NCBI GenBank assembly: GCA_026770575.1
Contig: MU657237.1
Coordinates: 148,351 to 194,867, forward strand
Direction of reading: 5' to 3'
Origin: Pelagophyceae sp. CCMP2097
Lineage: Eukaryota > Sar > Pelagophyceae
DNA length: 46,517 nucleotides
Shown here: positions 7,142 through 33,440 of the stretch, one piece after another
Layout: each line of letters starts with the position of its first letter
How positions within the stretch are numbered: the first letter of the stretch is position 1
Notes under the pieces: model-generated
What the model was told of the DNA's origin: nothing
The model's database searches: none
The model's input: the letters and a program-made list of their open reading frames with translations, nothing else
Made by a program: the position numbers and the translations under genes

Positions 7142-7528
7142 CGCGCCGCGCGCACCGTCCGAGTGTCGGACGCACCTCTCCACGCACAAAGCTGTCCTCC
7201 TCGACGACCTCGTGCACTCGCTCGTTTCCGCGGTCGGCAGCGCAGAAGATGCCCCGCCCAATCGCCATTCGTCCCGCTGCCTGCACCCCCAGGCGCCCCA
7301 CCAAAAAAAACGGTCGCGCGCGAGCGCGATTGACGAGAAGCCACTGGCACTGTGATCCCTTCTCCACGGTGACATCAATTGCAACAATTTCTCGCTTTTT
7401 GGCGATAACTTTTTGGCAATAACGTCGGGTCCGTTGGTGCGTCAAGGGCGAGGGCCTTCGAGCGGGGGCCTTCTCGTTGATCGCGGAGGGCGGTCTCCGC
7501 GACGGTGAGGTGCGGCTCTGGGTATCGA
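7142..7528. other. Intergenic region, no gene seen
   Basis: This 387-base spacer follows the RAP gene stop and precedes the surface-protein gene. It has lower GC than its flanks, an accaaaaaaaacggtcg stretch near 7300 and a partial short repeat (caatttctcgctttttggcg near 7380, then ataactttttggcaataacg). The open frames crossing it are shadows. Confidence 0.5.
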
Positions 7529-9291
7529 ATGCGTTTTATGGCCGTGTTTCTGGTGACGACTTTCTTCGCCCCGGCCGCTGCGAGTCCGACATCGAGCCCG
7601 ACGACGGCGCCGACGGGGCCGCCGTCGAGCGCTTTGACGCTTGCGCCGCCCGTCCCGACGGCCCTGCCGACTGCGGCGCCTAGCGCGGTGTCGTCGCCGG
7701 TGCCGACCGGTCCCTCTTCAGCCCCGACAGCCGTCCCGTCGGGCGTGCCGTCGGTGGCGCCGTCGGCGGCCCCGTCGACGACGCCGTCGCCGACGCTCTC
7801 TCCGACCGCGACGACGATCCCGACGGCTGCCCCGACGGCCGTCCCGTCGGGCGTGCCGTCGGCTTTTCCCTCGGCGGCCCCGTCGACGACACCATCGCCG
7901 ACGCGCTCTCCGACCACGACGGCGGCCCCGACGGCGGTCCCGACGGCGGCACCCAGCACGACGCGCATTCCCACCACGTTCCCCAGCGCGCTGCCGTCGC
8001 TGGTGCCGACGGGAGGGCCCTCCCCCGGGCCGAGCGGCATCCCCTCTTCGGCGCCGAGCGCTCCCTCTTCGGTCCCGACGGCCGCGCCCTCGGGCGCTCC
8101 CACGGCGCCGCCATCTCCGGCCCCCTCGACGACGCCGGCTCCGTCGGGCGCCCCGACCGCGACGCCTTCCGCGGCGCCTTCCGCGGCGCCGACATCGGTG
8201 CCGTCGGGCGCCCCGACCGCGACACCTTCCGCGGCGCCTTCCGCGGCGCCGACGTCGGTGCCGTCGATGGCGCCTCTAAGCGCGCCGACAAGCCGGCCGA
8301 CGTTCACGGGGCCTCCGACGACTGCGCCGAGCGTGCGGCCGTCGCCGGTTCCGAGCCGGAGTCCGACGACGTCGCCTGCGCCGTCGCTGCGGCCCTCTGC
8401 GTCGTCGCGGCCCTCCGGCATCCCCACGGCCGCGCCGTCGGGCCTGCCGACTGCCGTCCCGACGTCGGCGGCAACTGCCGTGCCGACGCCGTACTCGTCG
8501 TTCGCGCCCAACGCGCCGATGACGCAGCTCGAAGTCCGTCTGCTTTCTTCCCGACGCGCTGCGCCCGGTCTTGGACGGGCGGCGCTTAGGTCGCCATCCG
8601 GTCGAAGCTGTGGTTCGCCGACGACGCGCTCCGGTCCCGGACCAGCTCACGGCTCCAGCGCGACCTCGAGGCCATCATCACGGCCAACGTCCGCTCCTTT
8701 CAAGTTGGCTCCGTCGACAAAGTGAGCTTCAGCTTGGCGGCGACGGCGGCCCCGACGGTGGCGACGCCGGCCCCAACGGCGGCGACGCGGCGGCGCCTCG
8801 CGGGTGCCGCGTCGTCCGTCTCCTTCGAGGCGCACGTGTCGACTTTTTTCTACGGGACGAGCTTCAGCGGCGACCCGGCGGGCCGCGCGGAGGACGTCGT
8901 CGCCACGTTTTCGCGCGACCTCGGCGCCGTCGTGGCGCGCAACTGGACCGATGCGACGCTCGGCACCGCGTTCGCGACGTCGGCCGTCGACGTAAACGCG
9001 TCGCTCGCCGCGCTTGGGGCGAGCAGGGTCAACTTTACCGTCGTTTCGACGGAAAGTCCGTCCAAGTCAGGCGGCGCGTCGAACGCGTTCCGCGACTACG
9101 CAGTCTTCTTCGTCCCAATCGCCCTCGTCCTTGTCTGCCTCGTCTGTCTCGGCTGCGCCTACGCCCTCGCCCAGACGGTCACCTGCGGCCGCTGTCGAGG
9201 CGGCCTCGGCGCCGTCTACCCCTTTGCCGGCGTCTTGCCGCCGCAGCCGGCCGCGTGCTACCAGGAGACCAAGTGGTCCTTTGAGGAATAG
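7529..9291 (+). CDS. Secreted/surface PT-rich protein with C-terminal membrane span
   Basis: Exons 7529-8533 and 8590-9291 (56-base intron) encode 568 residues. The ATG at 7529 begins a clean signal peptide (MRFMAVFLVTTFFAPAAAS). About 300 residues of Pro/Ser/Thr/Ala-rich repeats follow (SPTSSPTTAPTGPPS and variants), a style common in heterokont surface proteins and a likely O-glycosylated stalk. A globular part of about 190 residues (MTQLEVAIRSKLWFADD onward, with SFEAHVSTFFYGTSFSG and NFTVVSTES) comes next, then a transmembrane helix (VFFVPIALVLVCLVCLGCAYAL) and a short cytosolic tail with CGRC. The globular part resembles domains often placed next to PT repeats in algae, but I cannot name it. 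Internal tandem duplications (60 bp and about 110 bp) show that the stalk length evolves by unequal exchange. Confidence 0.8.
7720..7945 (+). repeat. About 110 bp imperfect tandem duplication in the PT stalk
   Basis: The segments starting near 7720 and 7831 share long matching blocks (gccgtcccgtcgggcgtgcc; tcggcggccccgtcgacgac). They keep the reading frame and repeat the same P/S/T/A pattern. Confidence 0.65.
8141..8260 (+). repeat. 60 bp unit repeated twice in tandem
   Basis: Units 8141-8200 and 8201-8260 differ at only a few positions and encode the same 20-residue P/S/A/T block. Confidence 0.85.
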
Positions 9292-9420: not shown

Positions 9421-9500
9421 TGGGACCGGCGCGGTGTCCGGCGCACGCTCGGTTCTTGTGGAACGTGGGGCGTGCGCCATCATGGTGCGTTTGGGTCTTT
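9421..9500 (-). promoter_or_regulatory. Candidate SECIS element in the selU 3' UTR
   Basis: About 48 bases after the selU stop, the minus strand carries ATGA (9483-9480). A 9 bp perfect helix follows (GGCGCACGC at 9478-9470 with GCGTGCGCC at 9448-9440), and then GGAC (9439-9436). This supplies the TGA...GA non-Watson-Crick core of a eukaryotic SECIS. The apex holds a C-rich bulge (CCCA) and a GTTC/GAAC mini-stem, as in type II elements that use CC in place of AA. A basal helix can form between GACC (9497-9494) and GGTC (near 9423-9426). It should recruit SBP2 and the Sec-specific elongation factor. Folding was done by eye. Confidence 0.75.
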
Positions 9501-9530
9501 CACGTCGAGCTCTGGCGGTCCGTTTCGGCT

Positions 9531-10220
9531 TTAGAGGGCCGCCGTCTTGCAGGCGGCGACGAGGGCGTCGACGTCGGAGACGGCGCCGACCTCGGCCTCG
9601 ACGTGGGCGAAGTGCGCCTTGGCGCCGGCCTTTGCTCCCTTTTTCACAACGTAGACGCCGCCGTGGATCATGCCCTCGCCGATGAGGTTCCCGGCGCCGC
9701 CCTCCTTGGCGGCCTTGTTGTTGGCGTAGAGGGAGGACCACGGGTTGACGAGCATGCTCAAGAAGCTCATGATGGACGTGGAGTTCTTCTTGCCGCCGCC
9801 GATGGCGGTGAAGAAGGACATGGATTCGTCTAAATAAATGGCATTCCCTTTCCAAAAGCCGTCGCTAAACGCGGCAATCTCGCCCACCTCGCCCTCCTTG
9901 GGCGGCAGGTCCTCCTTGACCACGCAGACGAGGCGCACGCCCGCGGCGTCGAGCTCCGGCTGGCGCGCCACGATGCGCGCCGCCTCGGCTCGGCACATGC
10001 CTAAACGGAAAACGTCCCGAAACGATTCGAGCCCGGAGCCGCGCGCGCCCGCAGAGGGCCCGCGTGGGCACGCACGTCAGCCGGGCCGGCGGAGCACGAG
10101 GACCAACGCGGGCTGGTCCGACCAGAGCGAGCTGGCCTGGACGGCCGTGGCCGACTTCTGAGGCACGAGCTCCGTCAGCATAGCGTCGCTCGGCGGCGGC
10201 TGCGGCGGGAGCGCGGTCAT
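9531..10220 (-). CDS. SELU: Selenoprotein U (PRXL2/FAM213-type peroxiredoxin-like protein), UGA-encoded Sec
   Basis: Exons 10220-10076 and 10000-9531 (75-base gtgcgt...tttag intron) encode 204 residues if the in-frame TGA at 10079-10077 is read as selenocysteine. The active-site region is LVLVLRRPG-U-RMCRAEAARI. Animal PRXL2A has RRPGC-x-x-C-R-E-E-A at this place, and fish and some algae have U. Other family marks are GVRLVCVVKE, AIYLDE, GNLIGEGMIHGGVYVV and a C-terminal HFAHVEAEVG. The fold is thioredoxin-like, and the U-x-x-C pair is expected to act in thiol/selenol redox chemistry. Stopping at the TGA would leave a 47-residue stub lacking the conserved domain. ELP3 starts divergently 190 bases upstream, so the two may share a promoter region. 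Confidence 0.88.
10077..10079 (-). other. Selenocysteine codon (TGA) of selU
   Basis: The TGA lies exactly where the family has its catalytic Cys or Sec, one base before a canonical gtgcgt donor at 10075. The family continues in frame after the intron with xxCRAEA. Confidence 0.85.
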
Positions 10221-10409: not shown

Positions 10410-13238
10410 ATGTCGTGCGCCTCGCCGGATCACGGCCCGGATGCCACCGATGCCTATGTCATCGGCAATGCCGACGGCTACGAAGGTGACTCGCGGCGTC
10501 TCTTGAAGGTCGGCCCTGGGACGCGTCTGAGTCTCGGGGGTATTGGCTGACGTCGAAACGAGTCGGGAGCCCGGGGTCTCCGCCGCCGACGTCTCTCCCC
10601 CTAGGCGCGGAGCCTTCAACCGAGGTCGCCGAGCGCGCGCTGCACTACACGAACAGCATCGTCGAGGACATTTACCGGCGCTGGGACGGCCTCTGCCCAG
10701 AGGAGATGGTCCCTGGCCTCGAAGCCATGGTCGAAGCTCTCTCCGAGAACACGCCAATGTCGGTCCGTCACCTTGTTGAGCTCCTCGAGCGACCCCTCTG
10801 CTGCCCCTCCAGAGATGGCCACGCCGGACCCTTCTGCATGGTGTTGCCGTGATGCGATCTCCGTAGGAGAAGGAGCTTGCCTCGCGGCTGCAGCCGCTGC
10901 GCAAGCAGTACAAGCTCGCGCCGCGCAAGGCGCAGATCCTACACGTCTACCGCGCCATGCTCTTGGACGGGCGCGTGAAGCGGTCGCAGCCTTTGGAGGA
11001 GGTGCTGACGACGAAGGCGTCGAAGTCGCAGTCCGGCGTCCTCGTCGTCACCGTCCTGACGTCGCCGTTCCCGAGCGTCGCCGGCGGGCCGGCGCAGAAG
11101 TTTAGCTGCAAGTGGAACTGCTACTACTGCCCAAACCAGCCGGGCCAGCCACGCAGCTACCTCCGAGACGAACCCGCGGTGCTCCGCGCCAACCAGAACC
11201 GCTTTGACGCCGTCATGCAGTTCACAGTCCGACGCCGCGTCCTTTTCCTCCCTCGAGACGAAGTCTGGAAATATCCTCGCGCGGGTGCGAGGGCCCCCAG
11301 GAAACGTCGGCGTTCACACTGTGATGAGCGACATTGAATTCCTCGTTTCTGAAGCGGCGCCGCTGCAAAGCTTCGCCGCTCGTGAGACTTTACTCAACAG
11401 AACTAATCTTCTCTCTGAGTGTTCAACGCCCGACGTCGAGAGCCTCGCCTCGCAATTCTCCCCGGGGCGGCGAAAAACGGCGCGATGAGGAAACTGTCAC
11501 ATTCTTCGAAGCGGGCCAACCCCGCTGCAAAGCGAGGGCCGTTTATGAGACTTAATACACCCAAAAACAATCTATCCATCCGAGCGCTGTTCGGGCCGCC
11601 ATTCCCCCGGGATCCACCCTCGACGAGAGCAGATTCGCGTCTCGGTCGAACCTCCCCCGCTAGGAGCGGTGCGCGACGCTGGCGCAGAACGGCCACCCGG
11701 TGGACAAGGTGGAGCTGTTGGTCCTGGGCGGGACGTGGTCCTCGTACCCGCTCGAGTACAGAGAGGCGTTTTGCCGCGACCTCTACTACGCGGCCAACAC
11801 GTTCTGGGACGTGCACTCGAGCGGCGGCCGCGGCATGGAGCGCCGGCCGCGGCGGTCTTTGCGCGACGAACAGGAGCTGAACGAGGCCGCCCTGTGCAAG
11901 ATCATCGGCCTCACTTTGGAGACGCGGCCGGACACTATCACCCCCGAGGAGCTGCGGCTGCTGCGGTCGTACGGCTGCACTCGCGTCCAGCTCGGCGTCC
12001 AGCACATTGACGAGGGGATTCTTAAAAAGGTGAACCGCGGCCACGGCCGCCAGGCCACGGCCGACGCGCTGCGGCTCTTAAAGGACGCGTGCTACAAGGT
12101 GGACATCCACCTCATGCCCAATCTACCCGGCTCGACGCCGGCGGTGGACCTGAAGATGTTTGAGTCAGTGCTCTCTGACGAGGACCTCCAGGCGGACCAG
12201 TGGAAGATCTACCCCTGCGAGGTGACGCCGTGGACGGTGATCAAGAAGTGGTTCGACGAGGGCTCATACGTGCCCTACGCCGACTTGGAGCTGCACGAGC
12301 TCTTGTGCGCGGTCAAGGCCCAGGTGCACCCGTGGATCCGCCTGAACCGCGTCGTGCGCGATATCCCGTCGCACTACATCCTTGGCGGCGTCGACGCCCC
12401 GAACATGCGCGAGGACGTCCTCGTCGCCATGCGGCGTAAGGGCCTGCGGTGCAAGTGCATCCGCTGCCGCGAGGTGGGCGATATCGGCGGGCTGAACCAG
12501 CAGACTTTCGTCGCCGAACCATCGACGGAGATCCGCGCGGGCCAGAAGACGACGCGCAAGGAGCGGCGCGTGCAGCGCACCGGCGACGCCGCGGGCATCA
12601 AGAAGTGGTCGCTGCGCACGCGCCAGAACCGCGACGGCGTCCTCGCGAGAAGGTCCTCCGAGGCCCTCGCGCCGACGGCGGTCCTGACGCGCCGGACCTA
12701 CGCCGCCTCGGGCGGCGTCGAGCACTTTATCAGCTTCGAGACGGCCGACGAGGCGACCATCTTCGGCTTCCTCCGCCTGCGGCTCTCGGCCCAAGCGGGC
12801 GCCGCGGCGTTCCCGGCGCTGGAAGAGTGCGCGCTGATCCGCGAGCTGCACGTCTACGGCCAGCTCGTGCCCGGCGGGCGAACGGACCGCCTCGGCGTCG
12901 AGGCGCAGCAGCACCGCGGCTTTGGCAAGCGCATGCTCGCGGACGCGGAGCGCATCGCGCGCGAGGCCGGCTTCGAGAAGATTGCAGTCATCTCGGGCGT
13001 CGGGACGCGCGACTACTACCGCAAGCTCGGCTTCCGCCTCGAGGGCGACGGCGACTATTTGCTCAAGCAGCTGCCCAAGCTGATGAGCTGGACCATGCGC
13101 GCGTACCAGCTCGCAGTCCTCGTCATCGTCCTCGGCTTTGCCGCAGCCCAGTGCCGCGCGCTGCTCAACCACGAGTCGCCGCTGTACCGATCCTTCTTCG
13201 CCCTCGACCTGTCGGACAAGAGGCTCGAGCTGCGATGA
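10410..13238 (+). CDS. ELP3: Elongator catalytic subunit ELP3 (radical SAM / acetyltransferase) with C-terminal tail anchor
   Basis: Exons 10410-10485, 10605-10762, 10867-11226 and 11664-13238 give 722 residues with all phases closed. The radical SAM Fe-S cluster motif is CKWNCYYCPNQP, followed by QPRSYLRDEPAVLRANQNRF. Further family blocks are VDKVELLVLGGTWSSYP, GLTLETRPD, YGCTRVQLGVQ and NRGHG. The GNAT domain includes IRELHVYGQLVP, HRGFGKRML and IAVISGVGTRDYYRKLGF. ELP3 modifies wobble uridines of tRNA (cm5U). After the usual C-terminus the frame continues into a hydrophobic helix (AYQLAVLVIVLGFAAAQ) and a tail of about 35 residues. A comparable tail anchors ELP3 to mitochondria in Toxoplasma, so an organelle-bound form is plausible here. 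The third intron is unusually long (437 bases). Confidence 0.93.
11227..11663 (+). repeat. Long ELP3 intron with an internal imperfect repeat
   Basis: At 437 bases this is several times the typical intron of the window. Two diverged copies of one block start near 11350 and 11507 (both begin gaagcgg, share ccgctgcaaagc and end tgagactt), suggesting an old insertion or duplication inside the intron. Confidence 0.5.
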
Positions 13239-32330: not shown

Positions 32331-33440
32331 CGACGGCGTCACGGCGGACCCGGCGCTCGGCCTTGACGTGCTGCGCCTGGACCTGCACGTGTCCACGTTG
32401 CCCGATGGCGTCGTGGCGGATCCTGGCGCTCGGCCTCGACGTGCACCGCCTGGACCCGCTCGTGCCCATCGCGTCTGACGGCGTTGCGGTGGCTGGCGCT
32501 CGGCCTCGGCGTGCACCACCTGGACCTGATCGTGCCCACGCCACCCGACGNNNNNNNNNNNNNNNNNNNNNNNNNNNNNNNNNNNNNNNNNNNNNNNNNN
32601 NNNNNNNNNNNNNNNNNNNNNNNNNNNNNNNNNNNNNNNNNNNNNNNNNNNNNNNNNNNNNNNNNNNNNNNNNNNNNNNNNNNNNNNNNNNNNNNNNNNN
32701 NNNNNNNNNNNNNNNNNNNNNNNNNNNNNNNNNNNNNNNNNNNNNNNNNNNNNNNNNNNNNNNNNNNNNNNNNNNNNNNNNNNNNNNNNNNNNNNNNNNN
32801 NNNNNNNNNNNNNNNNNNNNNNNNNNNNNNNNNNNNNNNNNNNNNNNNNNNNNNNNNNNNNNNNNNNNNNNNNNNNNNNNNNNNNNNNNNNNNNNNNNNN
32901 NNNNNNNNNNNNNNNNNNNNNNNNNNNNNNNNNNNNNNNNNNNNNNNNNNNNNNNNNNNNNNNNNNNNNNNNNNNNNNNNNNNNNNNNNNNNNNNNNNNN
33001 NNNNNNNNNNNNNNNNNNNNNNNNNNNNNNNNNNNNNNNNNNNNNNNNNNNNNNNNNNNNNNNNNNNNNNNNNNNNNNNNNNNNNNNNNNNNNNNNNNNN
33101 NNNNNNNNNNNNNNNNNNNNNNNNNNNNNNNNNNNNNNNNNNNNNNNNNNNNNNNNNNNNNNNNNNNNNNNNNNNNNNNNNNNNNNNNNNNNNNNNNNNN
33201 NNNNNNNNNNNNNNNNNNNNNNNNNNNNNNNNNNNNNNNNNNNNNNNNNNNNNNNNNNNNNNNNGACGGCGTTGCGGTGGCTGGCGCTCGGCCTCGGCGT
33301 GCACCACCTGGACCTGATCGTGCCCACGCCGCCCGACGGCGTTGCGACGGCTGGCGCTGGGCCTCGACGTGCAGTGCCTGGACCTGGTCGTCCCCATGTC
33401 GTCTGGCGGCGTCGTGGCGGACCCGGCGCTCGACGTCGTC
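31975..33440 (+). repeat. 70-73 bp minisatellite encoding an LRR-like unit, interrupted by a gap
   Basis: Units such as gcgctcggccttgacgtgct...gtggcggat recur with lengths of 70, 72 and 73 bases. In the 72-base form each encodes 24 residues of the pattern ALGLxVxRLDLxVPTSPDGV plus TADP, reminiscent of leucine-rich repeats. The 70- and 73-base units break the frame, so the array seen here is not one intact coding sequence. The 714-base gap lies within it. Confidence 0.75.
32551..33264. other. Assembly gap (N)
   Basis: 714 unknown bases. The same minisatellite unit flanks both sides, so the gap is most likely more of the array and its size may be nominal. Confidence 0.99.

What the first reader, a model, noticed from the sequence alone, without database searches (positions are those of the whole stretch)
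9421..10220. Selenoprotein U gene with in-frame UGA and a matching candidate SECIS
Seen: the conserved active site of a PRXL2/FAM213-type protein is interrupted by TGA exactly at the catalytic residue (RRPG-TGA-R-M-C-R-A-E-A). A phase-perfect intron follows one base later. Downstream of the stop the minus strand holds a TGA...GA quartet on a 9 bp perfect helix with a C-rich apical bulge. Known: SelU family members in fish and some algae carry Sec here, and eukaryotic SECIS elements sit in the 3' UTR. Ordinary annotation would truncate this gene to 47 residues or start it after the UGA.
Basis: partly seen in the sequence, partly recalled or inferred. Interest (0 to 1): 0.9.

Follow-up and report, generated by a model that had tools for sequence, protein, structure and literature searches.

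The report
Selenoprotein U gene in a pelagophyte
This marine alga carries a gene for a selenium-containing redox protein of a known family, which the protein database cuts short because its selenium codon looks like a stop; the reading is sound but the kind of gene is already known from many algae.

Summary
On the minus strand a PRXL2/SelU-type gene runs from ATG 10220 to TAA 9531. TGA (10079-10077) sits at the catalytic position (RRPG-U-R-M-C-RAEA), a 75-nt GT-AG intron follows one base later, and a SECIS-like hairpin (9483-9436) starts 47 nt after the stop. In my implementation of published SECIS criteria it is the only ATGA-type hit in 93,034 nt. In that genome I inspected 11 genes with a stop at the catalytic position: four GPx, SelT, two SelM-like, MsrA and three PF13911 proteins including this one; all 11 have TGA. 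Nine other TGA-gene loci (two near-identical) have an ATGAC...GA hairpin after the stop; the window's own is a slight variant (ATGAT). A SepSecS gene is present. The protein listed for this locus starts just after the UGA. tRNA-Sec and selenophosphate synthetase were not recovered; no transcript or protein data for this gene were at hand. Sec-containing SelU is among the most widely distributed algal selenoproteins and is named in the pelagophyte Aureococcus, so this is a correctly spotted, truncated new member of a known family.

The parts
10076..10220 (-). Exon 1: ATG to ...RRPG-U and the first base of codon 49
10077..10079 (-). In-frame TGA read as selenocysteine (U48), aligned with the first Cys of CxxC in Cys homologs
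10001..10075 (-). 75-nt GT-AG intron, phase 1, one base after the TGA; same place and phase inferred, from protein letters only, in three Cys homologs
9531..10000 (-). Exon 2: M-C-R-A-E-A ... to stop TAA (9533-9531); PF13911 AhpC-TSA_2
9436..9483 (-). SECIS-like element in the 3' UTR, 47 nt after the stop: ATGA / 10 nt / CC / 29 nt / GA, helix GGCGCACGC:GCGTGCGCC, apical mini-stem GTTC:GAAC

Best explanation
A nuclear gene of the pelagophyte alga CCMP2097 encoding selenoprotein U (PRXL2/SelU, PF13911, thioredoxin-like). After removal of one 75-nt intron the mRNA encodes 204 residues. The UGA at codon 48 is decoded as selenocysteine because the 3' UTR hairpin (SECIS) recruits the Sec-insertion machinery (SBP2, EFsec, Sec-tRNA; established mechanism, recalled). 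The product carries a UxxC redox motif in place of CxxC and most likely works as a selenol/thiol oxidoreductase or peroxiredoxin-like enzyme. Shown here: gene anatomy, family membership, TGA position, the hairpin and its rarity, and the same arrangement in other selenoprotein-type genes of this genome. Inferred: that ribosomes insert Sec, that the intron is spliced as drawn, and the enzymatic activity.
For: PF13911 at E 1.7e-14. The PDB prostamide/PGF synthase 9us9 aligns with RRFGCVVCR on RRPG-U-RMCR, 1e-12; entry 9usa has Ser at both Cys places. Of 25 proteins listed from a search with a Cys homolog, 15 contain RRPGC at that place; the other 10 lack the motif, being shorter at that end or partial. 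In the same genome the stop at the catalytic place is TGA in 11 of 11 genes that I inspected: 4 GPx, SelT, 2 SelM-like, MsrA, 3 PF13911 including this one (the catalytic motifs of GPx, SelT, SelM and MsrA are recalled). Hairpin: the only ATGA hit under my implementation of the PMC2375036 criteria in 93,034 nt of window, against 1 in 175,338 nt of 27 control loci. ATGAC...GA hairpins follow the stop in 9 of 11 other loci scanned, at 43-77 nt in eight and 141 nt in SelT; here 47. Under that looser rule the background is 6 hits at -10.9 kcal/mol or better in 93,034 nt of window and 15 in 175,338 nt of control loci. SepSecS exons present. The five nearest other homologs (P0002-P0006, 49-55% identity) all start downstream of the Sec position.
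Against: No SECIS family of Rfam matched even at E up to 10. tRNA-Sec was not found by RF01852 (53 of 5768 candidates scored) or by a recalled pattern. Selenophosphate synthetase was not found by TIGR00476 (0 candidates); the PF02769 hits look, by recall, like PurM/PurN and PurL. Only 4 of 10 reference loci pass the strict criteria script. The window's element departs from the ATGAC shared by the nine reference elements (it has ATGAT) and from the CCGAC end of six of them. Four of the reference loci (L009, L010, L015, L023) had further hits under the looser rule, and in L023 a distant one folded better. The apical mini-stem alone is weak (-1.9 kcal/mol). The truncated starts of P0002-P0006 could also come from short contigs or partial transcripts. 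No transcript or protein data for this gene were available.
Confidence: 0.94

Rival explanations
1. A Cys-type PRXL2 gene that has become a pseudogene, or a sequencing error turned TGC/TGT into TGA.
For: One base change would explain a lone TGA; tRNA-Sec and SPS were not recovered.
Against: Two other PF13911 paralogs and eight genes of four other selenoprotein families have TGA at the catalytic codon in this genome; the downstream frame is intact for 156 codons; a SECIS-like hairpin is in place.
Confidence: 0.02
2. TGA is a true stop: translation makes a 47-residue peptide, or starts at M50 to give the 155-residue protein that the database lists.
For: P0001 is exactly that protein.
Against: It would lack the conserved stretch up to RRPG and the catalytic residue, which exon 1 shares with Cys homologs; the hairpin would have no purpose (inference).
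Confidence: 0.02
3. The intron is not spliced, or another donor removes the TGA, so that no Sec is made or 25 residues are inserted in the active site.
For: The 75-nt intron is open in frame.
Against: Splicing as drawn restores the CxxC spacing seen in the aligned homologs. Three Cys homologs (P0008, P0009, P0028) show what reads as retained intron beginning at the same codon and phase (from protein letters only). There is no GT between the RRPG codons and the TGA, so a canonical donor that removes the TGA would lose RRPG (by eye).
Confidence: 0.02

Closest known systems
Selenoprotein U (SELENOU / PRXL2 family) of algae, fish and invertebrates
   Same: PF13911-type redoxin, Sec or Cys at the same place of a UxxC/CxxC motif, 3' UTR SECIS. 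Sec forms occur in more than half of 36 algal genomes (PMC7539508, section 5 read); two SelU genes in the diatom Thalassiosira pseudonana (PMC2375036, passages); three SelU subfamilies in animals (PMC3473315, passages).
   Different: New species; URMC, where at least 7 of the 15 RRPGC homologs have CVLC (by eye); an intron starts one base after the UGA.
Sel U of Aureococcus anophagefferens
   Same: Same class (Pelagophyceae). The species has 59 (PMC5917014, passages) or 82 (PMC7539508) predicted selenoproteins, and Sel U is reported as overexpressed late in virus infection.
Prostamide/prostaglandin F synthase (PDB 9us9; PRXL2B by recall)
   Same: Same family by sequence and same active-site position.
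   Different: Cys protein with CxxC; substrate specificity is not transferable at this distance.

Membership tests
Selenoprotein U / PRXL2 | PF13911 AhpC-TSA_2 domain | tested here: met
   54.6 bits against cut-off 27
Selenoprotein U / PRXL2 | UxxC aligned with the family CxxC | tested here: met
   alignments
Selenoprotein U / PRXL2 | Which SelU subfamily (1, 2 or 3) | not tested
   no named SelU1-3 set was at hand; the PDB list held only prostamide/PGF synthase of this family
Eukaryotic selenoprotein gene | In-frame TGA with intact frame to a later stop | tested here: met
Eukaryotic selenoprotein gene | SECIS in the 3' UTR: NTGA, 10-13 nt, AA or CC, 15-39 nt, GA, stable fold | tested here: met
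   10 nt, CC, 29 nt, -21.4 kcal/mol with CC unpaired (criteria from PMC2375036). The same source asks -3.7 for the 'upper stem-loop': -22.3 if that means all above the quartet, -1.9 if only the mini-stem
Eukaryotic selenoprotein gene | Sec machinery in the genome | tested here: inconclusive
   SepSecS found; tRNA-Sec and SPS not recovered; SBP2 and EFsec not searched
Eukaryotic selenoprotein gene | Sec actually present in the protein | not testable with these tools
   needs 75Se labelling or mass spectrometry

The most novel reading that the evidence does not exclude
This pelagophyte uses a lineage-characteristic compact SECIS class (ATGAC in nine of nine reference elements, CC ten bases on in four, CCGAC at the 3' side in six, mostly 43-77 nt after the stop), shared across unrelated selenoprotein families, with the window's element as a variant (ATGAT, CC at ten, CGGAC). 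In this SelU gene the only intron begins one base after the UGA, so that splicing and selenium status may be coupled.
Probability: 0.2. Interest if true: 0.4.

Novelty: new member of a known kind. Interest (0 to 1): 0.27.

Why it matters
It adds a Sec-using pelagophyte beside Aureococcus, shows that the protein listed for this locus lacks its catalytic residue, and gives a small same-genome set of SECIS-like elements for finding more such genes. It does not change what is known about SelU or Sec decoding.

Tried and rejected
Rfam scan for SECIS: none among the seven weak matches. ARAGORN on the window: no tRNA. tRNA-Sec by RF01852 and by a recalled pattern: none. SPS by TIGR00476 and PF02769: none; the hits look like purine-synthesis genes, judged by recall. 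PF13098 as a further source of Sec genes: 9 matches, one (L044) with a TGA, not inspected. Relatives in viral contigs and in prokaryotic genomes: none. A covariance model of the SECIS set was planned but not built, because MAFFT misaligned L008 and L009 of eight elements, by eye. NCBIfam gives only SelL-related matches far below cut-off: 31.3, 18.8 and 46 bits against 120. Gobler 2013, the main Aureococcus selenoprotein paper, is not held. Rows not counted among the 11 genes: L016 (weak PF13911 match, below cut-off, no clear CxxC by eye), L035 and L044 (a TGA inside, not shown to be at a catalytic place), and L017, L021 and L037 (a TAG inside; L017 is the second exon of L003, the other two were not inspected).

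Full report
What is there. On the minus strand an ATG at 10220 opens a frame of 47 codons ending RRPG, followed by TGA at 10079-10077 and one base of the next codon. A 75-nt intron (GTGCGT...TTTAG, 10075-10001) follows, and exon 2 runs to TAA at 9533-9531; the product has 204 residues with U at 48. The protein belongs to PF13911 (54.6 bits, cut-off 27). It aligns with the solved prostamide/PGF synthase 9us9, whose RRFGC has its Cys on the TGA codon. In alignment with Cys homologs, among them named green algae, the TGA takes the place of the first Cys of CxxC; 15 of the 25 proteins listed contain RRPGC, and the other 10 lack that stretch.

The intron. It is open in frame, so its existence rests on the GT-AG borders, on restored CxxC spacing, and on an inference from three Cys homologs. 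P0008, P0009 and P0028 have extra residues directly after RRPGC that read as an unspliced phase-1 intron at the same codon.

The SECIS. The hairpin at 9483-9436 has ATGA, 10 nt, CC, 29 nt, GA. The criteria printed in PMC2375036 (passages read) are NTGA, 10-13 nt, AA or CC, 15-39 nt, GA, at most -12.6 kcal/mol for the whole and -3.7 for the upper stem-loop; with the CC held unpaired it scores -21.4. In my implementation it is the only ATGA hit in 93,034 nt; six hits of any first base were found there, and six, one of them ATGA, in 175,338 nt of 27 control loci (the number of loci is). An 82-nt fold has z = -4.1. Rfam has no SECIS match. Under a looser rule without the apical AA/CC the window has 10 hits, of which this is third by energy. 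My first scoring gave it 10, but gave known Sec genes only 4-7 or nothing, so that score alone says little.

Same-genome controls. The genome (66.2 Mb, 638 contigs) holds four GPx genes, each with one TGA. It also holds SelT with TGA after CTS (its match contains a second TGA), two SelM-like genes with TGA and MsrA with G-U-FW. Two further PF13911 proteins have TGA at the catalytic place: L003 and L015. With the window gene that is 11 of 11 TGA; the rows left out are listed under Tried and rejected. The looser hairpin rule found a candidate shortly after the stop in 9 of 11 other loci scanned. L026 (MsrA) gave only a distant hit, though an ATGA...CC...GA stretch is visible by eye nearer its stop, and L035, not validated as a Sec gene, gave none. 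L009, L010, L015 and L023 also gave other hits. L010 and L011 are near-identical tandem copies and are not independent. Distances from stop to ATGA are 43, 46, 46, 49, 55, 60, 77, 77 and 141 nt; here 47 (the 1775 printed for L010 comes from an upstream copy of the search word, and 77 follows from the stop position checked). Under the strict script 4 of 10 loci pass. All nine reference elements begin ATGAC, four have CC ten bases on, and six end CCGAC; the window's element has ATGAT, CC at ten, and CGGAC.

Machinery. SepSecS exons are present. tRNA-Sec and SPS were not recovered. SBP2 and EFsec were not searched.

Organism and annotation. The neighbouring ELP3 reading frame is 100% identical to M885DRAFT_526045 of Pelagophyceae sp. 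CCMP2097 on a contig of 258,187 bases, the length of the window's contig; Aureococcus ELP3 is 68% identical. The protein listed for the SelU locus starts at M50 (P0001). The five nearest other homologs also start downstream of the Sec position, which suggests, without proof, that they are Sec genes cut in the same way.

Known or new. Sec-containing SELENOU is in more than half of 36 algal genomes, and Aureococcus has 82 predicted selenoprotein genes (PMC7539508, section 5). Sel U is named in an Aureococcus expression study (PMC5917014, passages). A search for CCMP2097 with selenoprotein gave 0 papers; three papers hold the strain name (listing only). So this gene seems undescribed in that library, which lacks most subscription papers. 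It is a new member of a known kind.

Noticed in passing
L003 (G000:C43:35036-35380, minus): Second SelU paralog, RRPG-TGA-VLC-REEA, with an intron further downstream and a weaker ATGAC...GA hairpin 55 nt after its stop.
   Followed up: partly
L015 (G000:C23:267734-268126, plus): A third PF13911 protein with TGA at the catalytic place (RHYG-U-VFCWERA) and an ATGAC...CC hairpin 46 nt after the stop; it scores higher against the SelL-related model than the other two, still below cut-off.
   Followed up: partly
L010-L013 (G000:C111:58327-60409): Two near-identical tandem TGA-type GPx genes with identical 3' hairpins.
   Followed up: partly
window 10867-13235, plus: ELP3 gene divergent from SelU: radical SAM and acetyltransferase domains at 11664-13235; the 10867-11337 part is assigned by eye, without a Pfam match.
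   Followed up: partly
window 7481-9291, plus: Convergent reading frames with a PT-rich repeat stretch, ending about 145 bases from the SECIS.
   Followed up: no
window about 32500-33300: A run of N in repeated coding-like sequence, which explains the low G+C of that stretch.
   Followed up: partly
P0002-P0006: Homologs that all start after the Sec position; perhaps truncated Sec genes.
   Followed up: no
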